Below, piece by piece: positions 2,785 through 51,665 of a DNA stretch of 64,000 nt. The stretch covers positions 186,001 to 250,000 of the forward strand of contig NW_025939693.1 of assembly GCF_000764305.2 (NCBI RefSeq), written 5' to 3'. The DNA comes from Hyalella azteca. Its lineage: Eukaryota > Arthropoda > Malacostraca > Amphipoda > Hyalellidae. Within the stretch, counting starts at the first letter, position 1. Each line of letters opens with the position of its first letter. The position numbers and the translations under genes were made by a program. Below the pieces are notes generated by a model. The model was given only the letters and a program-made list of their open reading frames with translations. It was not told the DNA's origin and ran no database searches.

Positions 2785-3545
2785 TTGTAAGTGTTGCATT
2801 TGTGTTGAAGTGTTGCATAGAGTTGAAGTGTTGCATAGTGTTGAAGTGCTGCATCAGTGTTGAAGTGCTGCATGGTGTTGAAGTGTTGCATCAGTGTTGA
2901 AGTGCTGCATGGTGTTGAAGTATTGCATAGTGTTGAAGTGCTGCATCAGTGTTAAAGTGCTGCATGGTGTTGAAGCGTTGCATAGTGTTGAAGTGTTGCA
3001 TAGTGTTGAAGTGCTGCTTAGTGTTGAAGTGCTGCATAGTGTTGAAGTGTTGCATAGTGTTGAAGTGTTGCATAGTGTTGAAGTGCTGCATAGTGTTGAA
3101 GTGCTGCATAGTGTTGAAGTGTTGCATAGTGTTGAAGTGCTGCTTAGTGTTGAAGTGCTGCATAGTGTTGAAGTGTTGCATAGTGTTGAAGTGCTGCATA
3201 GTGTTGAAGTGCTGCATAGTGTTGAAGTGCTGCATAGTGTTGAAGTGCTGCATAGTGTTAAAGTGCTGCATGGTGTTGAAGTGTTGCATAGTGTTGAAGT
3301 GCTGCATAGTGTTGTTGAAGTGTTGCATAGTGTTGAAGTGCTGCATAGTGTTGAAGTGCTGCATAGTGTTGCAGTGCTGCTTAGTGTTGAAGTGCTGCAT
3401 AGAGTTGTTGAAGTGCTGCTTAGTGTTGAAGTGCTGCATAGTGTTGTTGAAGTGCTGCTTAGTGTTGAAGTGCTGCATAGTGTTGTTGAAGTGTTGAAGT
3501 GTTGCATAGTGTTGAAGTGCTGCATAGTGTTGAAGTGTTGCATTG
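2785..3545. repeat. 18-bp minisatellite, about 40 copies
   Basis: The unit TGTTGAAGTGCTGCATAG (with T/C and A/G/T variants) is repeated head to tail for about 750 bp. Some junctions carry a TGT insertion that gives TGTTGTTGAAG. Because the unit is 18 bp (a multiple of three) and lacks stops in several frames, long open frames exist on both strands (for example MQHFNT repeated on the minus strand). These are composition artefacts, not genes. Confidence 0.95.
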
Positions 3546-14097: not shown

Positions 14098-15216
14098 ATG
14101 ACATCTTCCAAGTCAATTGAATCGACAGCCGCTGTGCTGCTCGTACTCTTCGCTATCGGACAGGCAGCCAAGCTCGATAACCTCTCTGCGCAACAAACAG
14201 ATAACCGCCAGAGGTTCGCAGGCGCAGCCAATTTACTGGGTTCATACCTGCCTCCCGTGCCAGAACCCTGCAAAGATGTTACTTCCACTATCACGCTACC
14301 TGCCTCAACCGTCACTCGCACGGAGTACCAGAGTGGACCAGGAGTTGAGCGAACCGTTACGATTCCAGGCGAAGTGATCACCCAAGTGTCCACTGAGTAC
14401 GTGCCTGGTCAAGATGTCTACGTGACAAAGACTGAATACAGTACCGTTGAGATTCCTGGACTTGCTCAAACTATCGTGAGCACTCGGCTTTCAACGGTCT
14501 TAGACTACAAAACTACGACTCAAGTCCAATACTCGACTGTCGTGTCTACCATCTTGAGCACCCAGATTAGTTCAGTAGTTGTGCCGACCACAATTGTTAA
14601 CACCAGAACAACGACGGTCACTAGTCAGATCGTCAATACACAAACCATTACTCAAACTCAAACTAGAACACAAACGCAAACTCAAACTTTGCCCGCCCGC
14701 ACTGAATATATAACTACTACCAGAACCAGTACCCTACCAGCTCGTACCAGCACTGTCGTGTCCACACGAGTATCCACCGTGGTAGATTACTCAACCATTT
14801 TTAATACCGAATATCTGACGAATACCATAACTCAAACCCAGGTCTCTACTATCCGTTCTACAGTCTTATCTACGCAAGTTGTCCCCACAACTATCTACGA
14901 CGTCGAAACCACCACTCAATATTCTACCAAGACGAATGTCATAACTTCAACTGTTAGAGTGCCTGGAGAGCCTGTCATCAGAACTGTCACTGCTTCCGCA
15001 CCACCTATTGCACCACCTGTGACATCCTACGTTACCGATTACGTAACAGAACCTGTAATTCAAGTATCCACCATCTTTAGCACTCGTGTGGTCACCACGA
15101 CCGTGGGAGGAGGCCGTCCTGGTGTAGTAAGCACTGTAACAGAAACGCAGCCTTGTGCGCAGATTACCAAGCCTGGGTACAACTATGATGCTCCCTCCGT
15201 TGCTTTCAATTTCTAG
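14098..15216 (+). CDS. Secreted Thr/Val/Ser-rich repetitive protein, 372 aa
   Basis: This is a single long exon directly after a pyrimidine-rich CTGCAG acceptor-like site. The ATG chosen is the first base triplet of the open stretch. The first 23-25 residues form a signal peptide (hydrophobic AAVLLVLFAIGQA, cut near QAAKL). From about residue 60 the protein consists of loosely repeated blocks of Thr, Ser, Val and Tyr, such as YSTVVSTILSTQ, STVVDYSTIFNTEY and TQTQTRTQTQTQT, with very few Lys and only a few Cys (PC near residue 60 and QPC near the end). Many Thr/Ser could carry O-glycans. The style resembles arthropod cuticular, peritrophic or mucin-like extracellular proteins, but no defined domain such as a chitin-binding domain is visible. 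An AATAAA at 15334-15339 is a likely poly(A) signal. An upstream non-coding exon is possible. The family is not recognised. Confidence 0.75.
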   Translation: MTSSKSIESTAAVLLVLFAIGQAAKLDNLSAQQTDNRQRFAGAANLLGSYLPPVPEPCKDVTSTITLPASTVTRTEYQSGPGVERTVTIPGEVITQVSTEYVPGQDVYVTKTEYSTVEIPGLAQTIVSTRLSTVLDYKTTTQVQYSTVVSTILSTQISSVVVPTTIVNTRTTTVTSQIVNTQTITQTQTRTQTQTQTLPARTEYITTTRTSTLPARTSTVVSTRVSTVVDYSTIFNTEYLTNTITQTQVSTIRSTVLSTQVVPTTIYDVETTTQYSTKTNVITSTVRVPGEPVIRTVTASAPPIAPPVTSYVTDYVTEPVIQVSTIFSTRVVTTTVGGGRPGVVSTVTETQPCAQITKPGYNYDAPSVAFNF

Positions 15217-15339: not shown

Positions 15340-15949
15340 AGTAATATCCTCTTTCTGTATATAACACACACATGTATTTATTGATCATCTTAATTCACAA
15401 TGATGATTCACACACATATTCGTAATTCATTTAAACTCCAAATTCACCAATGTTTGAAGACAATGCCCCAACTTTTCAAGGTTCCGATGATTAAATTTCA
15501 TTAGAATAATTTCTTGATTTGTGTTACAGTCTGGTTACAATCTGTAATGATAAATAGCTATGATTTTCAAGAGTGCTGAAACGAGTTAATTAACAAAATG
15601 AAGCGTATGATTGTGAGCCGTCTTGAATTATTTTCCTTGCTTAATCTTGCAGTAATTTGCCAATGATCGAATTGAAACAAAAGAAATTTTCTCACATTAA
15701 CTTAGGTTACTGAAGCACGAAGCATTCAGAATTATGGCCGAAATCGAAAGTCATTACCCGTGCATTGAAACTGAAGAAAAACTCTTACATAGAGAGAAGA
15801 ATGAAGAAATTATGCACGAGAAATGTATTCAACTAACAACTATTAAAAATTTCGAAATTGATACATTGGGATATTGAGTGAAACTTAGTAGCATGTTTCA
15901 TATAAAAAGAGAACACGAGAAGAATACTCATGAGCTTTTAATAGCATAT

Positions 15950-16125
15950 TCATGAGCCTTTTTAGCGCATTTTCTCATTTATGGGAAAAATGCACTATTG
16001 TGCTCGCCATGTCCGTCTGTCTGTCTGTCCGTCCGTCTGTCCGTCCGTCCGTGACCTCAAGTTTTCGTCGACGAGAAAATGCGCTCTCTGTCACTCACTG
16101 CAGTGAGTACTGAGTTATATTTTTA
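15950..16125. repeat. Dispersed repeat with GTCCGTCTGTC tract (copy 1)
   Basis: The block runs from an AGCGCATTTTCTCATTTATG-like start, through a GTCCGTCTGTC microsatellite, to TTTTCGTCGACGAGAAAATG and the 16-bp perfect palindrome ACTCACTGCAGTGAGT (16093-16108). The same order of blocks recurs at 63170-63310. A non-autonomous transposon or satellite-like unit is likely. No coding capacity was seen. Confidence 0.8.
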
Positions 16126-16810
16126 ATAGAATATTCATGAGCTTTATAATAGTTAGGAATAAATATGCTGATTTTACACAATCAGCATATATACTCACTT
16201 GGCAGCGTTGCCATCATGATGAGGCTCCCGCTGTGGCGATACCCTCGCACTCTCTCAGCGAGGTCGCGGCTTCTGCAAGCGAGAAAAAAAGCTTCCGCTA
16301 TACAGTGTGTACGCTTCAAAAACGTGTATTGTTGTCATGAAAATAAAAGGAAAAGTTTTTGTTGTGATTGTTTGGAGGGCAGAGCTTTAGTTAATGATGA
16401 TGGTGTTGCGGTGGTGACGCAACCAAGGCCATAGAAGATAGCATACGAGAGGTTAAGAAACAGTTTGCATGATACAACTTTTTCCATGACGGCTACCTCC
16501 ATATTTTGTACTGTTTTATCAGTTACATTTGTTCTTGGCTTGAAAAAGCAGTGCAAAGTTTATTTATTCATTTTAGCGTTTGAAAATAATTTTATCTAAT
16601 ATTGCAATCTTTAAAAGAATTTGCAAAGTTCATGTTCTAAGAACCTCTGAAAAATTAAAATGCCGAATGTTTTTATTTCATCACTTTAAATTCTGACAAA
16701 TTCACAGAAAGTGAATGATGAAAGTATGCTGTGTTATAATAAAATAATGTGAAGAGAATGAATAATTTTTCAGGGATCTCATTATTTTGTCATTAAAAAT
16801 TCCATTGGAT
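16126..16810. other. Intergenic, no recognisable gene
   Basis: No supportable exon. Short open frames on both strands here have no recognisable protein character. Confidence 0.4.
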
Positions 16811-16857
16811 AAAGTTCAGAGTACCAAGATTGAAGCAGAGACGTGCGGGTCACGGAT
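16811..16857 (+). repeat. Fragment of a tRNA-derived SINE
   Basis: TAAAGTTCAGAGTACCAAGA and the following bases through GTGCGGGT match the interior of the SINE at 36958-37160. The A-box end is missing and the B-box is interrupted (GGGTCACGG). It is a truncated copy, and it shows that host-type repeat DNA lies only about 300 bp upstream of the ciliate-code frame. Confidence 0.7.
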
Positions 16858-17158: not shown

Positions 17159-18448
17159 ATGTCAAGTACGGAGTAAGCGCGGGAACGAAAAGCTGAATGT
17201 ATAAAAGCTTAACCCGTGCAGAATATTATGAGTCTTGTAGATGCCATCAAAGATAAAACTAATTTCATCGAAACGTAACAGAAGCGTGCGGAGAAATTTG
17301 AACGGCAAATGAAGAGTCTAGAGAAGAAAGTTTAGAGTTTGCTGTCTGATAATAGATCAATGAACATGACCATTCACAACTCAAGAAAAAATGGCTACAT
17401 GAGCATAGGGGAACTCAGGAGCGAACTTCAGAAAAGAAGAAACACCGAAAAAGAGCTCGAATAAGCCCTTGGCGATCAGTTGATGAGATTGGAAAAGACG
17501 AATGCTCGATTGTGCGCTCTAAAAGAAACGTGTAAAGACAAAGCAAAGAAACTCGCGAAACTTTAAGCTCTTACAGCGCAGAAGCAAGAAGATATCTGCA
17601 GAATGGATGAACAGGAGGCAAAAGAAAAGTAAAATCTGCAAAATCTCTTACGACATCGAGATATGCTGGCACGGCACGGGGAATAATCTCCAGAAAGAGA
17701 TTGTAACGAAAATCAAAAGATGGCCAAATTTCCCCAGAATCAGAGTAATAACTCACAGGTTTAGAAACTTGTATCAGATCCAGAAACAGGAGAAAATCAA
17801 ATTAATTAAGAGCATGCAGTGAGTGAGACATCAGGATCAAATTCATCGTCCTCAAACCCTACAGGAGTTACTGCTAACAATATTGCATAGATTCAAGAAG
17901 AAAACGAGCTTACAGAAAGTTTAAGCCTAGGATACCACAGCTTAGCTAGCTTCGATGTGACTTTGTAAGATCATGACGGTACATCCACCATGAACTTGAA
18001 CCTTGAAGAAAACGAATAAACGGGAAAAATGCATTCGGCCGAGCACGAATTTCGTCGATCAAGTCACGAATATCAAGATGGCTGTAAACGAGTAGACTCG
18101 GCTGAAGAAAATTAAATCTCACCAGCGAGTGTCAAAAGGTTGGGATTTGCAAGCCTTGAACGCGACAAGAAGTCAGTGGATGAATAACTTGGTCAAGCAA
18201 ACCTGAATTCCAAGTGTGCAAGAAGCAGTATCGAAAATACGGTGATCGCAAGTAAGAATTACGATCTAAAAAGAAAAGAGAGCCAAAGTGGCTATAAATT
18301 TAGAGACAAAACTAATGTTAAAGGAGAGCACGTGAAAAAAGTACAGTAATACGGATGTGAGATCAAAGAAAAAGTCGATGCTCTGAACTTTCTTCTTAAT
18401 CAGATGGACGAGTAGGTGGATTACAGTGCTTCCATAGAAAAATATTGA
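17159..18448 (+). CDS. 429-codon frame open only with TAA/TAG as sense (ciliate-type code)
   Basis: Reading from ATG 17159 in one uninterrupted frame gives 429 codons ending at TGA 18446-18448. The frame contains 17 in-frame TAA or TAG codons and not one TGA. Their first bases are 17174, 17210, 17276, 17333, 17462, 17564, 17630, 17684, 17762, 17807, 17888, 17966, 18017, 18113, 18185, 18347 and 18413 (13 TAA, 4 TAG). No frameshift was needed. With TAR read as Gln the product is hydrophilic and rich in Lys, Glu and Gln, with a coiled-coil first half (segments around KRAEKF, EKKVQSLL, EKELEQALGD, AKKLAKLQALTAQ), a Ser/Asn-rich middle and a second basic region. It contains no Trp. About 20 ordinary CAA/CAG codons also occur. 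This is what a ciliate nuclear gene (UAR=Gln, or Glu in peritrichs) looks like. Origin by transfer, by assembly of DNA from an epibiont, or by unusual host pseudogene decay cannot be separated here. No family recognised. Confidence 0.6.
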
Positions 18449-19473
18449 CACTTTCAATGAATAGCTTTCGTTCTCTTCGCGAAGAGGAGTGAGAATTTCT
18501 TCCTGAATTTCTGAAGATGTGAAATGAACGAATGTCATACCAAACTTTATTTTCTTAATTGCTGCAAACTAAGCACATCAGTGAACTTATTTTTATAAGA
18601 TTAAATGTAGAAAATTATCTTCAGACTATATATTTGTGTAGTGCCGGTATAACATTTGAATTTGTTTTTAATCATGTTAAAGTGGTAGGAAAAGTATTAG
18701 CACGTGTGGCTAACTCTGCACAGATTTTATACTTTTTATTATGGTCATAATAAACCTTAATTCTATAAAAGTCGCAATTAGCCTTTCCTTTGCGATAGAA
18801 AAAATAAATATCAGGCAAAAATTTCACGAGTCTCAATCTTGAGACACTCAATAAACAGAGACACACTCATAATATGCCTAAATATTATTTTAATGGAAAA
18901 TATGTTATGGAAGCTAAGACATTTCCTACAGATAATGTTGAAAGAAAGGAATAAGTTTACGGAAAGTTGATTTCTATTTCATAACGATTTTTTAACGCTG
19001 TGCATTCTTTTTCAATACGTCTTGATGCGATAAGATAAGAGCAATCTTATCCTTTACCAAGGCGGCGCGTCACACTAACGCTAACGTTGTGTTCACCACA
19101 AGTTGTGGTGTGTTGTTCTGTGCGGTCAGTAATTTTTTAGCTCTGCTGGTAAAAAATTGCGTTTCTTATGCCTGTAAATAATAAGTGACAAAAATTGCTC
19201 TGAAGTCATTCTGTACCAAACATTTACTGAAACTAAATATCTCGAATGGCTAAGTAAACCTGGAAAGAAGCTCAAAGCTGGAGCTTAAATGAGTCCTAAA
19301 GTGTCTCATTGGTATGAGTTCCTAGTATAAAATTCAAACTCTTGTCATTCATTAGTTTTAATAAATTTTTTTAATACAAATAAAATTTTTTTTTAATTTT
19401 TCCTTCAATTGTTTTAAATTAAATTCTCAACTTCATCGAGGCAGATTTGAGTTCTAGCCAACGAGTGCACTTC
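18449..19473. other. Intergenic between the ciliate-code frame and the thyroglobulin-domain gene
   Basis: No exon found. It contains two small perfect palindromes: CTCTTCGCGAAGAG near 18475 and CACCACAA-G-TTGTGGTG at 19094-19110, the latter near the probable promoter side of the next gene. The function of both is unknown. Confidence 0.4.
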
Positions 19474-22400
19474 ATGTTGATTACGATGAAGAGAACACGA
19501 TGGTGTGGCTGGCGGCTCTCATTCACCGCGTTTGTGGTGGTGAACTTTTTGCCAGGAGGATATAGCGATTCTGACCCCATCGAGAACTGCAAGCCCAAGG
19601 GCGGCGAGACGATCCTGTGCAACGACAGGACAGAGATATGTCGCAAATTAAACCTAGCAGTGGTTAGTTAAATTGTTTTTCATTGGTCATTTCCATTACT
19701 GATTTTGAAGTACAGAGCAAAACTAAAGGAAGTTTCACCACTGGTTTACGTAGTTTCTAAAACATAAATGAAAATTTACCTCAAAACGCGAGAATTTATC
19801 TGATCCATGGTCTATAGTAGGAGGAAAGAAAAGAATATTTTTTCATTGGAATGAGTCCAAGATAAATTATGTATTCCGCAGATCTATGACGTGGAAAACT
19901 ATTGCAGCAAGGGTGAAGTTCCTTACTTCAATCCTGCCTTCATCTGCAACTGTGACGTCATTTGCGTCGGAGCGCTCGGTGAGTCATAATTACGTATAAC
20001 TTGAGTTTAAATTGAACACTTATGAACGTAAAGTGTGCAAGCATAGATTGTCTATTCAAAAAAGAAGAAGCAAACTTAGACGAATTTTTTACACGATAAT
20101 ACTTAATACGTATGATTTTTAGCGGTTTTTACAATTACTAGAATTTCGTGCTGGAGTGCCATTTTTTTCTGCAGAGGAAGGTGCGGAGTGCAGCATGAAC
20201 TTCGCTAACGACTACCCAAAAGATCTGTGCGGGAACGGCCTCGACTGTATATCCAACGGCAGAACGTATACATGCCAGAGAAGTAAGAGAGAAATGAGAA
20301 AAGGTTTGTTCATAAAACTAAGTTTCTGAGAAGAGAAATAATGGTAAATCTGGTAAAAATGAACTTTGCAAAGATAAAAAATTTAGTAAAGAAGATGTTA
20401 TGCATATTTTGCGAAATCTGTCGCAAAATGCTGGTGATAAATAAACACAATATACTTTAGAAAAATCCCATTACTTTCAAAATTGTTAAAATTATTGAAG
20501 TCGCATATTCATTATAGACGTAGTTATCTGCCAAATTTAATTTTCGCCTACTACTGTAATAGTCTAAAATCTAAATAGTTAGGAATCTATTATAACTACC
20601 AAATTTAGCATGTAAATAGAAGCAATGACCGGGAACGTATATCACATTACAAAATGTTATTTGGCCCTTGATGAAATGTCATCGTGTTTATGGTGGCGAA
20701 CTTTTTGCTTGAAGTATATGGCGATTCCGACCTCATCGAGAACTGCAAGTCATTGCATCTTAGACCAGTGAGTGTAATTACACGATGAATGAATGAATCT
20801 CTTCCGTAGACCACATGAAGCCATGCGTCAATAGGACCATCGCGTACGAGAACGCGGCGGCAGACGGGATGCTCAGCCCAGGTCTCCTCCTCCCCGCCTG
20901 TAGCGATATCGGGAAATATGGGCCAGTGCAGTGTTCTACATCTTCTACGTGAGCAGTAACTGTACCACAAGATTTATCGAAAATTTATAACCAATTACCG
21001 ATTAATTAAACTTGTAGACAAATATGATATCTAATATGAGGAACATACGTCAGCGTGGCAAGCTATGAGGCCTTTTTCATGTATGTCATAACTCATAAGC
21101 CTAATTTATTTCAAATATATTACAATTATCTATCATTATTGCGTTTATGCTAACATGCACAGGTCACTCGCGTCTTATGCGTCTTCAACAGAAGTAGTCG
21201 AAAATTAACGAGCGGAAATAGGGAAATTATAAATATCTTGGCGAGTATTAATTGGCGTAGATCTATTTCAAATCAGTGTTATTATTACTGCATTTAATTA
21301 ATATACTGCATATTATTTTGCACTTTCATTCGGAATTGATTAAATTTTGATAAATAAAGTTTGTGATCTAACGTGACACATAATTAATTTATCTTACTGT
21401 ATACGGTATTTGCTAGAATGAGTCAACAAGGTATCGACGTTTTTTATAAGTTCTGTTATTCGATATCTACTCATCGTTTTGCCTGGTCTGTTATGTTCCG
21501 ACGTGTGACTGACGGAAGCATCTTCTAAAATATCAAATATTTGTGATGCTCACAATCTAAAAAGCGATATCCTTTCATTAGGTAGCGGACATTCGAAGAA
21601 ACGAGAAGGAATTTGTGTGAGGATTGCAGACATAATAATTGGATTCAATAAATGATTGTAAAAATTTGTGCAGATGTTACTGCACTGATACTGATGGCAA
21701 CAGGCTCTTTGGAGAGGCCGCGTACACTGAGAAGGATGCCATGGACTGTCGTGAGTATATAAATTTCAATTACTATAAGATAGCAGAATAAGCTTATTTA
21801 AACACGAGTGGTTAATGACCAGAGAAATCATTGATTTAAATTTTCAGGATCGAACAATATTCTTCAGTGGACGTTGGTTGATAAAAATTCAGGTTCATGG
21901 AAGTAATTTAATTTATTAACGACGTTTCGAATGTGACATCATTCATTTTCAAGTTATAGGAAGCATTGAATGTTCAATGCTTCCTATAACTTGAAAATGA
22001 ATGATGTCACATTCGAAACGTCGTTAATAAATTAAATTACTTCCATGAACCTGAATTTTTATCAACCAACGTCCACTGAAGAATATTGTTCGATCCTGAA
22101 AATTTAAATCAATGATTTCTCTGGTCATTAACCACTCGTGTTTAAATTTTCAATTGTTGGATTAACATCATGATATCATAAACAAATAATGACGTCAGTT
22201 GTTCAGTTATGGAAGGTACCTTGAAATCGGTCTGCTTAACGTTTCTACGAATGTTGGCTGGTTACTGCGAAATTATAAGTGGTCTCGGTTTTTTGACGAG
22301 TTGTTGTTAAAATTTGAAAATACTTTAATATGATATACTTTTAATCGCCAAATTTCCATTGAGAAACGGCGCAGACTTATACAAGGCCGACAGTGATTAT

Positions 22401-36198: not shown

Positions 36199-39100
36199 TC
36201 AGATAGGCATAGCGTCAGTACACTTGACGCACAGACACGTCGAGGTCAGCAGCGCGAACTGCCATACAAAAAAGGGTGTATAATATGGATGCATGGATCG
36301 AAACTATTAGCAGTTTAAAATTTTCAGATTTCAATATTTAAGCACATACATATTCGTAATATAATGATAAACAGCGAGAAATAGATTCAAGTTTACCAAT
36401 AGGCGTTCTCTGTCTCCAGAAACTTCCATTTCAATAAAAAAGTCCGAGCCAAAATTTTGCTGAGAGCCTCAGTTTCTATCTTAATCTTTGTCGAAATGCA
36501 GAGCGCAAAAGGTTTAAAACAATTAATAAATAAAGTTTGTCCTCTTCAGCTCATATTATAGTAGTCGCCAAACTGATCGCCTGGCTGATATTGTTTCAAG
36601 GCTCCCCATATTTAATGTGTCCCACGCAGCAGAACCACTGATTATTAAATGAAAAAAAGACTGACATTTTAACTTCTGTTGTGATCTCATATTAAAGTTG
36701 TAATTAAACTACTGATTCTTAAGTTATTGCGAATAATTTCCTGAGAATATTAGTTCTGTAGTGACCTCAGGTCAGGAGCCGTACTTTCAAATCTTGCCTG
36801 TAAGTACACGTAACGGCCGATTACTCGTCTGTGATTGTAGGTTTAGCTTGAAAAGTCGGCAGTAATTGGCTGACTTAGTTACGAACTTATACCTATTTTC
36901 GATATTGCGGCTCTACAGGTGCGCCCAAGTGTGCTCGCTTGATTACATTTATCTAGGCAGGGTGGCCTAGTGGTTAAAGTTCAGAGTACCAAGATTGGAG
37001 CAGAGAGGTGCGGGTTCGATTCCAGCTCTGTGCGCCAGTTTCTGGTCAGAATCGGCGAGGAGGCCGGGCGGTTTAGCACAGCAGAATTTGAATCAGTGAG
37101 TTGTGAGTTCGAGACCGCAACAAGCTCTGAATGTTCTGCGATGTTAAGAATCGGCGACAGGCCTACGGCCTACTAAACGCTGAAACCGCTATTATCTGTC
37201 GAAGTATAAGTAGGGACCAATGTTGAGTCTTTGATTGATTGGCTTAGCTTGAAAAGTCGATAATTATAGGATGACTAAGTTATAAAATTGCTACTATTTC
37301 CGCTAGTACTGCATTAGGACTGTAAACTCTGGTGGTGTGGTGCAGTGCAACTAGGAAAAGTGCTGAAAGAGCAAAAGTGGCCAGACAGAGGAAGGAGAAA
37401 TGGAAAAGACTCTAAACTCTCACCACCAACACCCCGAAAAAGATGGAGAAGTGTATCGTGGCTACCGCCTTGTCAGCGACGTCTGCCAGGAGCTTCTCAT
37501 AGCAGCCTGTGATATAGAGATCGTTTGTGTTCTTAGATGTGCACGTTGTTCCTGTGAACTCCCTGCAGCATCCTGCTGGGCGTTTGCCCTGTAATAGTGA
37601 CACGCGTTATACCAGCTATAAGATTGAATTAAGGCAAAAATGTAAAGTAAAAAAGAGTTAAATGAAATAAATGTTTTTTTCGTTCGGAAATAACAAACAA
37701 AATATATTTGAATAAGTATGAACGGAATTATAAGGCGATAAAATTAACTTTTTTTTCCAGAGCAAAATAGATATAGCAATATAATAAACGCTTATACTAC
37801 TGGAACTCCCATAGTCTGAGAAATCAAAGAATGGATTCAACATTGACCTCATGATTAAACACTTGAGATCAAAGCGAATTTTTATTTTCTAAAATTAATA
37901 TATATAAATTGGAAGTTCTATGTAATGTTGCCGCGATTGCTGAGATAAATACTCCACGAGATGAAAATCTTTCAAGGACATTTTGAGGCGAATCAAAATA
38001 ATGAAATAAATAAATAATTACCTTCCTAATCTCTTGAAAATATTAACAACAGAAGTTTTCACGAAACAAATTTAAGCTTCTAGGTTCTCAAGAATAACTT
38101 GGAAGTTAAGATTAACATTGATAATCCATTAATTTCGAATTTTTTCTAAGGCGAAAAGTATAATTCGAGATCTGAACTGATTTATCTCCTCTAGTACTAC
38201 CTAACAACTGTCTCATTTTTCGATAACTTATGCATTGTTCCCTTTACCTAGCACCCAACAATTATTCCCAAACTCTCACCTAACCATTGTTTCATTTCGA
38301 TAAAATTTAACCATTGTATCAGATCCCTAGTACCTAACCAATAGTAACCATTGTTTCATTTTTTATGACTTGACTATTGCATCCTTTTCCTAGCCCTTCA
38401 CGATTGTCTCTTTCACGAAGCACTCAACCATCGTCTCTTTCTCTAGCGCCCAACCGTTATCTCCTCTTATTACACTCAACCATTGACTCTTTCTCTATCA
38501 CCCAACTATTCTCATCTTCTCTAGCACCCAACCATTCTCTTTCTCAAGCACCCAATCTTTGTCTTTTTCTCGAACACCCAACCATTGTCTTGTCTCTTTC
38601 TGAAGCATACAATTATTGTCACCTTTTCTAGCACTCAATCATTGTCACCTTCCCTAGCACCCAATCATTGCTCTTTCTCGAGCACCCCATCATTGTCTCC
38701 TGCTTGCCAGAAGATATTGTATCCTCTCCCTATCTCATACCTTTGAGCAGAAATGCAAGACTTATCCATTGTCTCATTTTTCTAAAACTTTACCATTGCC
38801 TTAGAGACAAACATCACACTTACGTCTGGGTAGTCGTAGCAGTTCATAGATCCACAACACTGGTTCTGGGGACGCATCATTTTCATTAAAACTCGTTATG
38901 CACGCATCAAACATTTCGAAGCTTAAATAAAATTATATTAGCAATATGAAGAGTTCATGTATGATATCTTAAATCTCTAATTATCTCACATATATAAGCA
39001 TATAGGAATAATGTTCAAATACGAAGTCGTCGTTCAACCGTCACCGTCCGTACACTTACATTTTTGTAGATTATATCGACTTGGTTTTCGAATTCCCCGG

Positions 39101-43660: not shown

Positions 43661-44627
43661 CCGTTTTTCTGGGAGTTAAACATGATTTAAAATATTCAGT
43701 TTCTTAGAACGATAAGAACCATAGTTCTAATGTTTTAGAACTATAATAACAAATCAAGTTTTAATCTATATTAGTTCATTTTTTTAATCCGGGTCCGCAT
43801 AACCGGTGAGGGGAGTCAGGGGACTTGTGCTCAGGTCCGCTGTGAAAGTGGCGGTCAGTAGCAAGACGGTTTATGTAGGAGCTGCGGTCGACGACGGTCG
43901 TTAAGTGACTCTGCGAGAACAAAGGAAAGGCAACTGACTTACTCTTCTCCACTGCAAAATTGTAATTATTTCTCAGCATTATTTATACTTATAAATACTA
44001 TTATTATTATTTTTCGTAATCCGTTGAAGGGCGGTTGCCCCGTGTCACGGTGTCAGCCTTGCAGGGCTGCCTGAGCTGGACAGTGGACACGATGGGCAAA
44101 AACAAACGGAGAAAACAAAGTGGAGCTTCAAGTCATTCAGACTCAGATGGAAACACTTGCTCCAGCCATGAAAACTCGTTACTCTCCTCTTTCGATCCCA
44201 ATGCAATTCCATCTCTTTCGCGACCACCTCCCTTAGCCATAGGCTTAAATCAGAACTCAGCACTTCAATGTAACCTGGATCTGCCTTCCCACACTAGCCA
44301 TGGTGTGGTTGGTGCCCAGCCAATTTGTGTCTTCATTAAATGTTCTTCCCATGATGCCCAACATTACAACTAATTCTGGTATTCACAAGAATCACAACTT
44401 TGAGGGATTCTTAAGCTCTATCCCCCTTGATGATGTTTCCGACTCTGACACTGTAATTACAGCAGGACAAAGGAACCATGTAGAAAACCTGATGAGTCAG
44501 CAAAGCTGTGTCATTTTGATTGAGCCAGTTTCACTCCTGGATGATGGAGACTGTCAATCCACACCTGGTCAAGTTGATTTAAGTAGGTTCCTCTCTAATG
44601 ACCTTGCTCTCAGCAAGGCACTGGCCA

Positions 44628-44806
44628 CATAGTGGCAAACCAGAGCTTTTTAGAATCGGTTCATTTTAGTTTCCTCATTTACTCGAGATTTAAACCAATT
44701 TCTTAAGTACGATAATGCTGGTATCCAGGATACTTTACTGGTCTACTTGTAGGACTCAAAATGAACTTGAGGGAGAGTCTAAAAAACTCTCTGCTTTGCC
44801 ACTATG
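44628..44806. mobile_element. 179-bp hAT-type MITE inserted in the LINE gag
   Basis: The 18-bp terminal inverted repeats CATAGTGGCAAACCAGAG and CTCTGCTTTGCCACTATG differ at one position. The insertion is flanked by an exact 8-bp target duplication ACTGGCCA (44620-44627 and 44807-44814). The uninterrupted site is seen in LINE copy 3 (near 49586). The 8-bp duplication is diagnostic of the hAT superfamily. There is no coding capacity. Confidence 0.93.
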
Positions 44807-45344
44807 ACTGGCCACTTCTGCTTTTGGAAAAGTTGGCATCTCTAGCATGTCAAAAAATATTGCCCATAATTTACTGGTTCTAAATATGAAAACATCACAA
44901 GGAGTCTCGCATCTGCTGGAGGTGGAGAAGCTGGGAATGTGGAAAATTAAATGCAGACTTCCTGCTAGTCAAACTACAACAGCAGGAGTTATTGGCCCAT
45001 TTGGCAGTGAAGTGTCCAATGAAGAACTCACTGAAGCTCTGACCTCTGCAGGACACCTGGGCGTTACTGCAGAGAGAATCTTGAAGGGAAAAGACCTTGT
45101 CAAGTTGTCAGGACCTCAATGTTCAAAGTAGTCTTCCCCTGTACTGGCCTGTAGTGCCCTGCCTTCACATGTGACCATTGGTTACCAGCGTTTCCAGGTT
45201 AACATATTTGTAGACAAACCCTGGCAGTGTTTCAGATGTCAGCGCTTTGGACACAGTGCTCTAACCTGCAAGAGTCAACCCCGCTGTGTTGTGTGTGGTG
45301 GGAGTCATGGTGTGAAAATGTGTACTCATACAGGCACCCCAAAG

Positions 45345-45646
45345 CATAGTGACAAACCAGAGATTTTTTAGAATCGGTTCATTTTTAATTTCCTCATTTA
45401 CTCGAGATTTAAACCAATTTCTTATGCAAGATAATACTGGTATCCATGCATGGTGCCAATCCATAGGTTATTCAAAAGAACCTGTTCTTATGTCATTTTG
45501 AACCGATCAACACTTCTTTATGGACCGATCGTAAAACACACCTTCACCGGCAAAAGCTTTCACACTTCTGAAGAAGGTGAGCTGACAGCTACACTCGCCG
45601 TGGGGTGTGGGTGGACCTAATTTGAATTTGAATGCATGCAGCGATT
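45345..45646. mobile_element. Second, longer relative of the hAT-type MITE, right end missing
   Basis: It starts CATAGTGACAAACCAGAG and follows the 179-bp MITE for about 100 bp (GAATCGGTTCATTTTTAATT, CTCGAGATTTAAACCAATTT), then diverges. It interrupts gag after ACCCCAAAG, where copy 2 continues TGCTGTAATTG. No right inverted repeat is seen before the N at 45647. Confidence 0.7.
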
Positions 45647-46454
45647 NAACTTGTCGTATTCTGCACAAGCTCAAAAAGCTAAACGTTCTGTCAGCACTCA
45701 AACTACTGAACCTGTTCAGCAATCTCTTGAAGCTAAAATCTCTCTCACCCAACTGATTGACCTTTTATCACGCGTTCTGTCACTATGCAATAACACAGAT
45801 TCCCTTGCCACAAAAGGAACCATTACCAAAATAGCTGCTGAAACTTTCAAACTCAATCCATCAGCCGAGTTACAGGATACTAGTGCTTTTTGCTCAGTGC
45901 TGCCAGAAACATCAAATCCCCAGAACACTGAAGCTCAGGCTGTAAGGCCCAGTGATGATCCTGCACCTATGCTCTCCCTGGAGGCAGCAATGGATGACTC
46001 AGATGTATTTGTTGAGGATGGGCAGATTACTCCCTCACCAATCCTAGGTGGAGCTATCTCCAAGACAAAAAAAAACTTATTCTCTTTGCCCTTCACCAGT
46101 AATAGGGGGCAAGCCACAACCTAAGATAATGGGTAAACAACAGAGGACTTTCTCAAAGCTGCAGTTACCTCACTTGAGCATAGTCCAAGAAAATGTCAGT
46201 AGACAGACAGCTGAAAGTACTGCAATGGAACTGCCATAGTCTGTGTAATAAACTGAGTAACTTTAAACTGTATCTGTACACACACAAACCCCACATTGCC
46301 TGCTTATCTGAAACATGGCTATCAACTGGCTATGAGCCAAAATTTATTAATTATACTCCAATTTATAAACATAGCGGTGATGCACAAGTCGGGGGAGGCC
46401 TGGCTATTCTGGTGAGAAGTGATGTCTCTTTTTTAAATATACTGTCAACCGGGG

Positions 46455-46650
46455 CTACTCGGGACATTTGATCATTTTTTTGTCAATAACTGTTAATAAC
46501 TTCTTACAATGAAACATTTCATAAACAAATTTAGGCTTGTTTTATAGCTCTTTGCGAGGGCTATCAAATGGCATTGTCAGAAAAATTCCATATGCTATTC
46601 GTAAGGAGCCAGACGCTAAATAAAGATTGTCCGGAGTAGCCCCGTCGGTC
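46455..46650. mobile_element. Short foldback element ending copy 1
   Basis: GGGGCTACTCGGGACA (about 46452) and TGTCCGGAGTAGCCCC (about 46629) are inverted with one mismatch. A third copy of the motif, GGGCTACTCGGGACA, follows directly. It is a non-coding inverted-repeat element inserted in the LINE endonuclease. Confidence 0.65.
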
Positions 46651-46940
46651 GGGCTACTCGGGACAATGGGAATAAAACTTCATTTCAAAACATTTGAAGC
46701 ATGCAGAGCATACTCATCCATTACTAACAGTACTCTGAAGTCCTCCTCTTTCATTGTAGACTATGTAGAGGTAGAATAAATGACATTTTCTGTGATTTGT
46801 ACTTGTTTTTCCTTTATTGATATGATATTACCATAAACATTAATTACCATCAACTGGGGTGACTTCAGCCTTGTTTTTGATTCATGCTGGGGTTGTAAAC
46901 GCCGAGGTCATAAACGCCAGGGTTGTAAACCTGGTCATAN

Positions 46941-47630
46941 TCCACACCTGGTCAAGTTGATTTAAGTAGGTTCCTCTCTAATGACCTTGCTCTCAGCAAG
47001 GCACTGGCCACTTCTGCTTTTGGAAAAGTTGGCATCTCTAGCATGTCAAAAAATATTGCCCGTAATTTACTGGTTCTAAATATGAAAACATCACAAGGAG
47101 TCTTGCATCTGCTGGAGGTGGAGAAGCTGGGAATGTGGAAAATTAAATGCAGACTTCCTGCTAGTCAAACTACAACAGCAGGAGTTATTGGCCCATTTGG
47201 CAGTGAAGTGTCCAATGAAGAACTCACTGAAGCTCTGACCTCTGCAGGACACCTGGGTGTTACTGCAGAGAGAATCTTGAAGGGAAAAGACCTTGTCAGG
47301 ACCTCAATGTTCAAAGTAGTCTTCCCCTGTAGTGCCCTGCCTTCACATGTGACCATTGGTTACCAGTGTTTCCAGGTTAACATATTTGTAGACAAATCCT
47401 GGCAGTGTTTCAGATGTCAGTGCTTTGGAGTACACAGTGCTCTAACCTGCAAGAGTCAATCCCGCTGTGTTGTGTGTGGTGGGAGTCATGGTGTGAAAAT
47501 GTGTACTCATACAGGCACCCCAAAGTGCTGTAATTGTGGCGGAGCCCACACAGCAAACTATGACCGGTGTCCCAGCATGAAGCAAGCTAAAACCATAGAG
47601 AAAACCAGAACCATGCCTAACCCTTTACGC
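46941..47630 (+). mobile_element. I-clade LINE, copy 2 (gag fragment with three zinc knuckles)
   Basis: It begins immediately after a lone N at 46940, at the point CCACACCTGGTCAAGTTGAT of gag. The frame is open through the SKNIARNLLVLNMKTSQ block to three retroelement-type zinc knuckles: CFRCQCFGVHSALTC, CVVCGGSHGVKMC and CCNCGGAHTANYDRC. The first knuckle has one residue too many (V inserted by three bases, ACACAG to TACACAG context) compared with copy 1, which would disturb metal binding. Homology stops after KTIEKTRT, where unrelated repeat DNA begins. No endonuclease or reverse transcriptase is present. Confidence 0.85.
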
Positions 47631-48200
47631 CCTGGCGTGACGAATTCGTCACACAGAAAAAAACATTGGTTTTCCAACAATTTCACGTTTTCTGTCATTT
47701 TTTCAAAAAATTCACAAGAATGAAAAAAGTCTTACATTTATTTTTTACATATGTGTACCAAGTTTCAAAGTTATCTGTCGGTAAGTAACCGAAATAAAAT
47801 TTCCAATTTCCAATGGCAATGTCCAATTTCTTATGAAAATTCTATTTCGGTTAATTACTGACAGATAACTTTGAAACTTGGTACAAATATGTAAAAGATA
47901 AATCTAAGACTTTTTTGTTTGTGGGAATTTTTCCAAAAAAGTGAAAGAAAACGTGAAATTCTTAGAAAACTGACAAAAAGGGGGTACTGTAGAAATCTAT
48001 CACCTATGATTTTTGAGCTACAACATCGAGACGCATATCATTCGATGCGTAAGGACCATATCTATCGATTGGTCCTTGTTGTTTTTCAAAATTCTAATTT
48101 TTGTGGGTGGGGTGGGCATTTTTCAAAAAAATTGGTTTCTCCCCCCCTCCCTTTTGAATTTCCCCTCCCCTTTTTTCAAAATATTTTCAAAACTATAACG
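47631..48200. mobile_element. Inverted-repeat element inserted in LINE copy 2
   Basis: It starts at CCCTTTACGCCCTGGCGTGA, which contains the perfect palindrome GTGACGAATTCGTCAC (47637-47652). Inside, CCAAGTTTCAAAGTTATCTG (near 47757) recurs inverted as CAGATAACTTTGAAACTTGG (near 47864). A segment CGACGCATATCATTCGATGCG-like (near 48025) is related to sequence at 56640 and, inverted, at 56830. A piggyBac-like end (CCCTTT next to CTAA) is possible but unproven. Confidence 0.6.
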
Positions 48201-48204
48201 AAAA

Positions 48205-48512
48205 TGAAAAAAAGCTTCAGGCTGCGACTGGGACATGCTGGGGTGAAGGCCCACCTGGCCCGTTTCAACATGGCTAATTCTAGCATCTGCCCCGAGTGCA
48301 ACACAGAAGACACAATCAGACATTTCATCTTGAGCTGTGCACTTTACACTGACCAGAGGAGGGAGTTTCGCTCAAGTTTGGAAGCTTTATCACTACCTTG
48401 GACACTCATCTTGGCTCTTGGTGGGGGAGATATCCCACAACGACGAAGAACTGCTGTAATACGTCATCTTGGACAATACCTGCTGGAATGCAGCATGGTG
48501 AATACCCTTTGA
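48205..48512 (+). pseudogene. C-terminal zinc-finger end of a related I-clade LINE
   Basis: Translation gives RLRLGHAGVKAHLARFNM, then CPECNTEDTIRHFILSC and the tail RRRTAVIRHLGQYLLE. This is the post-RNase H Cys/His region of I-type LINE polyproteins. It corresponds to 50190-50475 of copy 3 but is clearly diverged (CPECNTED against CTCGSPE), so it derives from another element of the family. It is open to a stop at 48510 but lacks all catalytic parts. Confidence 0.75.
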
Positions 48513-48858
48513 ACACCCTTTGAAAATACTCAGTGCCTAATTCTCTTGTCTCTTCTACACAATAATCACCGGTTGGTGAGCAACAGAAACCCAAATTGAA
48601 AGTAAAGTGGCAAGATAATACAAGTTTTCAACAAAGAGTTGTGCTCAGGCTGGGAGGTGTGATATATTCATACCCGAAGTCTTAAAATCAATTATAAAAA
48701 AAAATATGAGTGTCTGATTGAGTGACCCGGGTTTGAGATGCTGACGGGATGAGTTTTGGATTCGATGGTGACAAGGACACTTTACAAAAGCGATCGTTTG
48801 AGTTTTGACTGGATGATGTGGCACGAAGAAAAGTAAAGTTATCAATGATTCCGGTTTT

Positions 48859-51665
48859 AGCTGCGGTCGACGACGGTCGTTAAGTGACTCTGCGAGAACA
48901 AAGGAAAGGCAACTGACTTACTCTTCTCCACTGCAAAATTGTAATTATTTCTCAGCATTATTTATACTTATAAATACTATTATTATTATTTTTCGTAATC
49001 CGTTGAAGGGCGGTTGCCCCGTGTCAGCCTTGCAGGGCTGCCTGAGCTGGACACGATGGGCAAAAACAAACTGAGGAAACAAAGTGGAGCTTCAAGTCAT
49101 TCAGACTCAGATGGAAGCACTTGCTCCAGCCATGAAAACTCGTTACTCTCCTCTTTCGATCCCAATGCAATTCCATCTCTTTCACAACCACCTCCCTTAG
49201 CCATAGGCTTAACTTGGAACTCAGCACTTCAATGTAACCTGGATCTGCCTTCCCACACTAGCCATGGCGTGGTTGGTGCCCAGCCAATTTGTGTCTCTTC
49301 ACCAAATGTTCTTCCCATGATGCCCAACATTACAACTAATTCTGGTATTCACAAGAATCACAACTTTGAGGGATTCTTAAGCTCTATCCCCCTTGATGAT
49401 GTTTCCGACTCTGACACTGTAATTACAGCAGGACAAAGGAACCATGTAGAAAACCTGATGATTCAGCAAAGCTGTGTCATTTTGATTGAGCCAGTTTCAC
49501 TCCTGGATGATGGAGACTGTCAATCCGCACCTGGTCAAGTTGATTTAAGTAGGTTCCTCTCTAATGACCTTGCTCTCAGCAAGGCACTGGCCACTTCTGC
49601 TTTTGGAAAAGTTGGCATCTCTAGCATGTCAAAAAATATTGCCCGTAATTTACTGGTTCTAAATATGAAAACATCACAAGGAGTCTCGCATCTGCTGGAG
49701 GTGGAGAAGCTGGGAATATTTGCAATACATGAGGCTCTTAACTGGTCACTAACAAATCTGTCTCCTGCTGAAAAACTTGTTATCTTTACTGACTCCCAAG
49801 CATCTATTTTGCTGATCAAAAATAGAAAACCAAATAGCTACTTGCATCTAGTTTTCAAAATTCAAACTTCAAACCATGTCGCTACTCTCCTCTCATGAAA
49901 TATTTCTACAGTACATCCCTGGGCACAAGGGCATTAGAGGCAATGAGGTGGCAGACCGGGCAGCAGCGGAAGCGCATTCCCTGCAGTACCGGACTATAAC
50001 TGCCATCTCAAAGGAGGAACTGGCAAGACAGTTGAATATTAAGATGATGTCAAAGTGGAACAGTTGCTGGCTGAACAATATTAGAAATTCAGGGAAGGGC
50101 CTCTTCATTAGCTTAATCAAAGGGGAAGTGGGTGATTGGCCATGGGCCCTCAACAAAAATCGTGCTGTGGAGACGGCCCTGGCCGGACTGCGCACTGGTC
50201 ACGCTGGAGTGAAAGCACACCTAGCTTGTTTCAACATGGTTGACAGCCCCTTATGTACCTGTGGGTCTCCAGAAACCATTCATCACCTGCTGCTGAGTTG
50301 TCCAATTCATGCCTCTGCCCGTACTAATCTTACCAATGCATTAACTGCACTTAATGTTCCAGTCAATTTAAGGAATCTGCTGGGAGGAGGTCCTTTTTCT
50401 GATGTCATCCAGGATGCAATTGTTAATGCAGTTGCCTCCTTTCTAACTTCAACTAATATGCTTCAGGTACTTTGATACAAAATTTGTTACTGGCATAGTC
50501 ATTAGGTACTCTAACCCTGAGTAGAATAAATTCACCTAACAATTGTGGGAACTAACAATCTAAATTTAAATTCCTTCCCACACTCAACTGAGTGCTTTGC
50601 TAATGGAAAGAACAGCACTCCATGCAGTTTTAATAGATTTAGGAATGACTAGTTTATGTAAGTAGGGACTGCCTTTTGTGAGGAGTGCTGTTCTTGCCCC
50701 ACTTACTAAGCCTTCCCTAGCCTCAGTCATAACCCCGCCCACAGGAGATTGTGTTTTGTTAAGTTGTTTTGCAATCAAAGTTAATCTTTCTTGATATGGC
50801 TGTTGAGCCAAGAGAAGCTCCAGGCTGCCCCCACCCAGGCTGGACCTTCAGCTAGCTTAAAGATCTCATGTGTGGCGCAAGTTAGGGCATGGTTGTGACA
50901 ACTAATACTGGTTTTGATCTTGAATTGTTAAAAAGAATACTTGCCTGATGATTGAATATAGTGGTAGCACCCAAATTTTTAACGTTTGGTGCTGAATTGC
51001 TTTATTTATTTATTTTTTCTTAGCTCATGTGTATATAGATATGCTCCACAGGTCTGCACTCTGCAGTGTTCCACGGCAGACCTGTGGAGTGCGATGCGTG
51101 CCACGTGTCTTATCCTCTTCAACGGGTTTGCCGTCCATGCTATGTTGTGTTATTGCATTTTATATTTTATGGTTCTGTTGTTATATAATTTTTTTTTAAA
51201 TTATATTTATATATTTTGTTCTTATTTCAAATTATTATCCTTTTTTTTTCTTTTCATTTATTTTATTTTTGTATATACCGTATATATATTTTCATTTATT
51301 TAATTTTTATTATTATTTTAATTTTATTTTTTTTTCATTAATTATTTTCCTTTTAATTTTCTTTGTTTTGTTATTTACTCCTAATATTTATTTCTTTCAT
51401 TGCTTCAATTTTAACGCTTATGTTTAATTTTTGCACAATTGTGTATTTTTTCTTATTATTATTGTTATTATTATTGTTATTATTATCATTATTATTATTA
51501 TTTGTTTTGATTTTTTTTTCCGTGTGTGTGTTCTCTCTTTGTTTCAGGTTTTCACTCTCAGAGCTGTTAAAACAGTTAGGTACCAATTAAACCTAGTTTA
51601 GGCAAGGGGCTATATGGACTAGTTTCCAGTGCTCCTATATGAATAAATAAGAAAGAAAGAAAGAA
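48859..51665 (+). mobile_element. I-clade LINE, copy 3: internal deletion joining gag to RNase H
   Basis: The left end is AGCTGCGGTCGACG as in copy 1. Gag begins MGKNKLRKQSG (49056) and stays open to LLEVEKLG, then jumps at about 49718 directly into RNase H (IFAIHEALNWSL), so the zinc knuckles, endonuclease and reverse transcriptase are deleted while the frame is kept. RNase H motifs HEALNW, IFTDSQASI and GNEVADRAAAE remain. A +1 frameshift near 49880 separates the last two. The C-terminal zinc finger CTCGSPETIHHLLLSC and the tail to a stop at 50475 follow. The 3' UTR contains a 14-bp hairpin (51044-51057 / 51076-51089), a T-rich and TTA-rich tract and a GAAAGAAAGAAAG tail that marks a plausible 3' end near 51665. 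Confidence 0.85.

What the first reader, a model, noticed from the sequence alone, without database searches (positions are those of the whole stretch)
17159..18448. Gene-length frame that is open only under a ciliate-type genetic code
Seen: 429 codons in one frame from ATG to a terminal TGA with 17 in-frame TAA/TAG and zero TGA, and no frameshift. Known: several ciliates read UAA/UAG as Gln (peritrichs as Glu) and keep UGA as stop, and ciliates are common epibionts of crustaceans. The stops sit where Gln or Glu would suit a coiled coil. Host-type repeat DNA (a SINE fragment at 16811) lies about 300 bp upstream and a normal-code animal gene begins about 1 kb downstream. Inference: horizontally acquired ciliate DNA, or a chimeric assembly with epibiont sequence. 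A host pseudogene with C-to-T decay is less likely, because six CGA codons survive and no TGA arose.
Basis: partly seen in the sequence, partly recalled or inferred. Interest (0 to 1): 0.88.

Follow-up and report, generated by a model that had tools for sequence, protein, structure and literature searches.

The report
Foreign-code gene inside animal contig
A stretch of an invertebrate animal's genome assembly looks like a complete, undecayed gene for a coiled-coil protein, but it reads as a protein only if two normal stop signals mean an amino acid, as in many ciliates; it is probably foreign DNA, and whether it is truly in the animal's chromosome or was put there by the assembler is open.

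Summary
In detail: 429 codons from ATG (17159) to TGA (18448), 17 in-frame TAA/TAG, no internal TGA. Length alone is near chance: 0.27 such frames expected per 64 kb; 19 TGA-only frames of at least 380 codons, this one included, lie in 234 kb of this contig. The coding evidence carries the case. Codon periodicity rises and falls with the frame; 1 of 1500 nulls reaches it, 0 of 1500 its first-position G excess. Heptad periodicity crosses the TAR codons (p about 0.002). A single-sequence fold gives 106 residues at pLDDT 90 or more, one control frame none. Unselected decay would need 0.31-0.40 substitutions per site, with about 4 TGA and several to many frameshifts, none seen; no host parent was found. 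A dispersed host repeat lies 308 bp upstream; the near right anchor is inferred. No homologue was found, and no TAR-rich tubulin or HSP70 among the matches scored, so donor and route are not shown. Best reading: an intact UAR-sense gene of ciliate type in an animal contig, recently integrated or chimeric.

The parts
17159..18448 (+). TGA-terminated frame of 429 codons with 17 in-frame TAA/TAG; coiled-coil protein if TAR is sense
   Evidence: codons; periodicity, extent; fold
17165..17392 (+). predicted long helix, residues 3-78 (first coiled-coil arm)
   Evidence: single-sequence AlphaFold2 with TAR read as Gln, ten-residue blocks pLDDT 61-93
17405..17680 (+). predicted long helix, residues 83-174 (second arm); one heptad register fits through TAR codons 102, 136 and 158
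   Evidence: pLDDT mostly above 90; heptad test, register
17681..18325 (+). mostly disordered linker; the strongest 150-codon first-position G signal of the frame overlaps it
   Evidence: pLDDT mostly under 50; G1 excess 0.187 in 17762-18211
18326..18442 (+). predicted C-terminal helix, residues 390-428, moderate confidence
   Evidence: ten-residue blocks pLDDT 44-83
18446..18448 (+). terminal TGA
18458..18460 (+). second in-frame TGA four codons downstream (tandem stop, weak evidence)
15955..16125 (+). dispersed host repeat of about 170 bp: left host anchor
   Evidence: 39 near full-length matches elsewhere in the genome at 94-99%; 40 of 1812 candidates scored
16802..16850 (+). 49-bp fragment of a dispersed host repeat: nearest left host anchor, 308 bp lie between it and the ATG
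   Evidence: 39 other places, 90-94% identity; 40 of 171 candidates scored
19523..19593 (+). exon-like stretch of the downstream normal-code gene, duplicated at 20679-20749: nearest right anchor, inferred to be host
   Evidence: 85% local duplicate; not searched in the genome
36971..37015 (+). another copy of the 49-bp host repeat: a right-hand host anchor that does not rest on inference
   Evidence: 93% to 16806-16850, repeat family

Best explanation
The frame is an intact, apparently intronless protein-coding sequence from an organism that reads UAA and UAG as an amino acid (most likely glutamine, possibly glutamate) and stops only at UGA: a ciliate or another UAR-sense protist, for instance an epibiont or parasite of the animal. 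It encodes a protein with two long coiled-coil arms, a disordered linker and a C-terminal helix, so most likely a structural or cytoskeleton-associated protein of the donor (inferred). In the animal it could yield only five residues before a stop, so it would do nothing there. It sits in a host contig either because a piece of 1.3 kb to probably under 2.7 kb was captured recently during DNA repair or because the assembler joined it in; I put these two about level. Shown: the frame, the coding signal, the lack of the marks of decay, host repeats on both sides. Inferred: donor, residue, right border, route.
For: Frame and codons. Periodicity chi-square 34.6, 1 of 1500 nulls; G1 excess 0 of 1500; heptad p 0.0015-0.002 at 84 and 56 residues. 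Signal and purine richness start and stop with the frame. Best locus of a 234-kb survey for TAR-interspersed coding signal at 250 codons; tied lowest 84-residue heptad p of 67 frames, where the tied and the third frame read as tandem repeats. Fold: mean pLDDT 60.6 and 106 residues at 90 or more, against 42.9 and 0 for one purine-rich TAR-open control. First base of YAR behaves like a silent site: T in 17 of 37, against 10 of 19 for leucine YTR codons, p 0.78 (counts, test). Decay disfavoured; no host parent among the 8 candidates of the first look; single copy by DNA. UAR=Gln is the commonest ciliate code and UAR=Glu occurs in peritrichs (PMC10553269, passages).
Against: No homologue. No TAR-rich tubulin or HSP70 in the same assembly: of 62 tubulin and 61 HSP70 matches listed none has more than 3 TAR (59 of 121 HSP70 candidates were scored). 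CpG and TpA ratios of the frame resemble the upstream flank (1.03 and 0.67 against 1.00 and 0.70). TGA-only frames of this length are common here. Total periodicity per codon (0.076) is lower than in two clear normal-code frames of the contig (0.24 and 0.27). Heptad p is only 0.05 at 28 residues, and TAR codon 40 falls on a core d position of the fitted register. Third base of TAR (13 A: 4 G) resembles GAR (33:13) more than CAR (9:11), p 0.09 against CAR, which would fit Glu rather than Gln. Neighbour charges do not decide.
Confidence: 0.62

Rival explanations
1. Decayed host pseudogene: an animal coiled-coil gene or its retrocopy whose Gln and other codons mutated to TAR.
For: Coiled-coil genes are rich in codons one step from TAR; host origin has the higher prior; base composition resembles the host. 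CAR-to-TAR 17 of 37 against CGA-to-TGA 0 of 6 is by itself not significant (p 0.066).
Against: 17 TAR need 0.31-0.40 substitutions per site, which predicts 3.6-4.8 TGA (0 seen) and 13-17 frameshifts at an assumed indel:substitution ratio of 0.05, 5-7 at 0.02 (0 seen). P(0 TGA of 17) is 0.0003-0.047 over 16 parameter sets. Stops in the listed host HSP70 matches: 3 TGA of 15. No C-to-T excess: C/(C+T) 0.449 in the frame, 0.342 and 0.309 in the flanks. No parent found. No poly(A) tail seen by eye downstream.
Confidence: 0.15
2. Chance: a purine-rich non-coding stretch that lacks TGA in one frame and only looks like a coiled coil.
For: Length is ordinary for this genome; K, E, R, N and S are what purine-rich DNA encodes; no homologue; the finding was picked by eye, probably from many.
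Against: Order-dependent tests (heptad p 0.0015-0.002; G1 excess 0 of 1500) and a signal that ends with the frame; fold confidence far above one purine-rich control.
Confidence: 0.14
3. Assembly chimera as the route (a sub-case of the best explanation): foreign reads from an epibiont were joined into the host contig.
For: Single Ns in the window (45647, 46940) suggest a short-read or merged assembly; a dispersed host repeat lies 308 bp upstream, where assemblers err. Genes of epibionts (bdelloid rotifers) are reported in gammarid transcriptomes (PMC10597677, listing and start of abstract only).
Against: Host DNA on both sides requires two wrong joins; no TAR-rich tubulin or HSP70 gene among the matches scored, although foreign contigs may have been filtered out.
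Confidence: 0.31
4. A working host gene read through by stop-codon suppression in the animal.
For: Only that the frame keeps the form of a gene.
Against: 17 suppressed stops in one mRNA has no precedent that I recall; most listed tubulin and HSP70 matches of this genome hold no stop.
Confidence: 0.02

Closest known systems
Ciliate genes in the UAR=Gln code (NCBI table 6; e.g. Tetrahymena, Paramecium, Oxytricha)
   Same: TAA and TAG in frame as sense, TGA the only stop, another in-frame TGA soon after the stop (weak)
   Different: No sequence homologue found; lies in an animal contig
Peritrich ciliate genes in the UAR=Glu code (NCBI table 30)
   Same: Same codon pattern; third-base usage of TAR resembles GAR
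   Different: Residue not determined; no homologue
Endosymbiont DNA in animal genomes (e.g. Wolbachia inserts; recalled, and PMC4046930 by listing and start of abstract)
   Same: Foreign coding DNA with host DNA on both sides
   Different: Such cases are recognised by homology to the donor (recalled); here only the code and the coding signal speak
Processed pseudogenes
   Same: Single exon with in-frame stops
   Different: No parent found, no poly(A) seen, no frameshift, no TGA

Membership tests
Gene in a UAR-sense, UGA-stop code | In-frame TAA/TAG spread through the frame, none TGA, terminal TGA | tested here: met
Gene in a UAR-sense, UGA-stop code | Coding signal continues through the TAR codons | tested here: met
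Gene in a UAR-sense, UGA-stop code | TAR aligns with one residue in homologues | tested here: inconclusive
   no homologue
Ciliate gene | Sequence homology to ciliate proteins | tested here: inconclusive
   no hit; collections thin in eukaryotes
Ciliate contamination of the assembly | Other TAR-rich marker genes in the assembly | tested here: not met
   62 tubulin matches (76 of 76 candidates scored) and 61 HSP70 matches (59 of 121 scored), none with more than 3 TAR; the 18S rRNA search did not complete
Horizontal transfer into the host | Junctions supported by reads or present in relatives | not testable with these tools
   no reads; no relatives of the host held
Processed pseudogene of a host gene | A parent gene in the genome | tested here: not met
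   8 candidates scored; next-best matches E 3.5 and 5.6; a parent missing from the assembly is not excluded
Processed pseudogene of a host gene | Stops and frameshifts as neutral decay gives them | tested here: not met

The most novel reading that the evidence does not exclude
A gene of a UAR-sense protist, probably a ciliate epibiont or parasite, was captured recently and whole into the germline chromosome of its animal host: a transfer betrayed by its genetic code rather than by homology.
Probability: 0.3. Interest if true: 0.75.

Novelty: new variant of a known kind. Interest (0 to 1): 0.45.

Why it matters
If integrated, it would be protist-to-animal nuclear DNA transfer recognisable without any homologue, and it would suggest a general screen: search animal genomes for frames with full coding signal that are open only when TAR is sense. 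If chimeric, it is a warning that foreign-code genes can slip past decontamination, because gene callers and protein searches that use the standard code do not see them.

Tried and rejected
Homology: Pfam (one family, DUF7310, E 0.33), solved structures (three matches: two entries of ribosomal protein S12 at E 0.036 and 0.045, dynactin subunit 1 at 0.099), 5.8 billion proteins (none at E 1 or better among 5468 and 67 candidates), viral contigs (5 pattern matches, none confirmed), GTDB genomes (15 pattern matches, none confirmed). The two contig scans back-translate Q as CAR only, as I understand the tool, so they would miss TAR-using relatives. Control: the neighbouring host gene found 3 relatives.

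CpA-to-TpA or C-to-T hypermutation (RIP- or APOBEC-like, recalled): rejected, TpA o/e is 0.67 and C/(C+T) is higher than in the flanks. Gln versus Glu by neighbour charge and heptad position: inconclusive. Ciliate telomere-like motifs (recalled) within 15-20.5 kb: only one CCCCAA at 15466. A small TAR-open, coil-like frame at 15617-15877: too short to judge, not pursued. 18S rRNA in the genome: not completed. Host species: not identified. Paper searches for ciliate sequence in crustacean assemblies or ciliate-to-arthropod transfer (listings and starts of abstracts only) gave nothing on ciliates in an arthropod genome; the nearest was epibiont rotifer genes in gammarid transcriptomes (PMC10597677). 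This is not proof that nothing is in print.

Full report
WHAT IS THERE. Window 17159-18448 (+) is an ATG-to-TGA frame of 429 codons with 13 TAA, 4 TAG and no internal TGA; CAA and CAG are also used, 9 and 11 times. The TAR codons are spread along the whole frame (codons 6 to 419). The window is C2586:186001-250000 of a 519-Mb, 4890-contig assembly, inside a 632-kb contig. An open frame about 0.38 Mb away on that contig carries seven CBM_14 peritrophin-A stretches, so the host is an invertebrate, probably an arthropod (inferred); 'crustacean' was not tested.

IS IT MORE THAN CHANCE. By length, no: 0.27 TGA-only frames of 434 codons or more are expected per 64 kb, and 19 of at least 380 codons, this one included, lie in 234 kb of this contig, one of them with 23 TAR and no coding signal. 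By coding character, yes. Base use by codon position departs from chance as in genes: chi-square 34.6, reached by 1 of 1500 phase-free simulations in which TGA was barred; G at position 1 exceeds all 1500. Hydrophobic residues follow the heptad of coiled coils (p 0.0015 for 84-residue and 0.002 for 56-residue windows against shuffles of residue order, but 0.05 for 28). The first-position G signal and the purine excess rise and fall with the frame. In the 234-kb survey it leads 143 overlapping windows of 250 codons that are TGA-free with interspersed TAR (0.152, next locus 0.084); at 150 and 200 codons only the tandem array near 3 kb exceeds it. Of 67 TAR-rich TGA-only frames two share the lowest heptad p at 84 residues, this one and one that reads as a tandem repeat; the third lowest also reads as one. 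Total periodicity per codon is nevertheless lower than in two clear normal-code frames (0.076 against 0.24 and 0.27). A fold from the single sequence, TAR read as Gln, gives helices 3-78 and 83-174 with 106 residues at pLDDT 90 or more; one purine-rich control frame with 21 TAR gives none. One control is few, and pLDDT of coiled coils from one sequence is only supportive.

WHY NOT A HOST PSEUDOGENE. At codon-count level, gaining 17 TAR by unselected mutation needs 0.31-0.40 substitutions per site; 3.6-4.8 TGA should come with it, and 13-17 frameshifts at an assumed 0.05 indels per substitution or 5-7 at 0.02; none is seen. The chance of 0 TGA among 17 is 0.0003-0.047 over 16 parameter sets. 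The listed HSP70 matches of the host carry 15 stops, 3 of them TGA. There is no C-to-T excess and no parent was found: besides itself the translated frame finds only E 3.5 and 5.6 among 8 candidates; a parent absent from the assembly is not excluded. CAR-to-TAR 17 of 37 against CGA-to-TGA 0 of 6 alone is not significant (p 0.066).

WHICH CODE. The first base of YAR is T in 17 of 37, like the leucine YTR codons (10 of 19; p 0.78), which fits TAR and CAR as synonyms, i.e. Gln. But third-base usage of TAR (13 A, 4 G) is closer to GAR (33:13) than to CAR (9:11), which would fit Glu, p 0.09 against CAR. Neighbour charges do not decide. In the fitted heptad register TAR codons 102, 136 and 158 take outer positions, codon 40 a core d position. 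UAR=Gln is the commonest ciliate code and UAR=Glu is that of peritrichs; UGA was found enriched in the first four codons downstream of genes in one ciliate species (PMC10553269, passages read). Here a second in-frame TGA lies four codons on; by chance this happens in roughly one gene in ten (my estimate), so it is weak.

WHERE HOST DNA BEGINS. Left: a 170-bp dispersed repeat at 15955-16125, with 39 near full-length matches elsewhere at 94-99%, and a 49-bp repeat fragment at 16802-16850 with 39 other places. Right: about 50 bp near 19351-19402 recur at two other places, 86-87%, AT-rich and weak; the normal-code gene whose exon-like stretch 19523-19593 is repeated at 20679 is taken as host by inference; the first right-hand anchor that rests on a genome-wide repeat is 36971-37015, a copy of the 49-bp family. 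A foreign piece would thus be 1.3 kb to probably under 2.7 kb. DNA search finds the frame once in the genome.

DONOR AND ROUTE. No relative was found, but the collections hardly cover such eukaryotes: the neighbouring host gene found 3 proteins. No match with more than 3 TAR was found among 62 tubulin and 61 HSP70 matches (59 of 121 HSP70 candidates scored), so I saw no sign of general ciliate contamination, though contaminants may have been filtered before release. Two wrong joins around a short insert are less simple than one capture, but transfer of protist DNA into an animal germline is, as far as I recall, rare; I hold the two routes level. In the animal the frame would stop after five residues, so no function there is expected.

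VERDICT. Observation confirmed; interpretation partly supported: a coding region in a UAR-sense code is the best reading (0.62), donor and route unproven.

Noticed in passing
15617-15877: A second short frame (86 codons) open only if TAA is sense, coil-like, about 1.3 kb upstream of the main frame; may be chance.
   Followed up: partly
15955-16125: High-copy dispersed repeat, 39 near full-length matches at 94-99% among 40 of 1812 candidates scored, so a young repeat family.
   Followed up: partly
16802-16850: A 49-bp stretch recurs alone at 39 or more places at 90-94%; the core of a short repeat or a fragment of a larger element.
   Followed up: no
44035-50475: Two related retroelement-like ORF series (MGKNK...SGASSHSDSDG start), an RNase H domain just over the Pfam cut-off in the second; the first series is split over several frames.
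   Followed up: partly
L047:6879-9578: Host open frame with seven peritrophin-A (CBM_14) stretches in a Gly/Ser-rich protein on the same contig.
   Followed up: yes
2789-3543: 18-bp tandem array (41.6 copies) open in several frames; scores as coding in periodicity tests and must be masked in such surveys.
   Followed up: partly
14098-15216: Thr/Val-rich repetitive host ORF in the normal code; 3 relatives at E 0.001 or better among 7995 candidates scored, no Pfam domain.
   Followed up: partly
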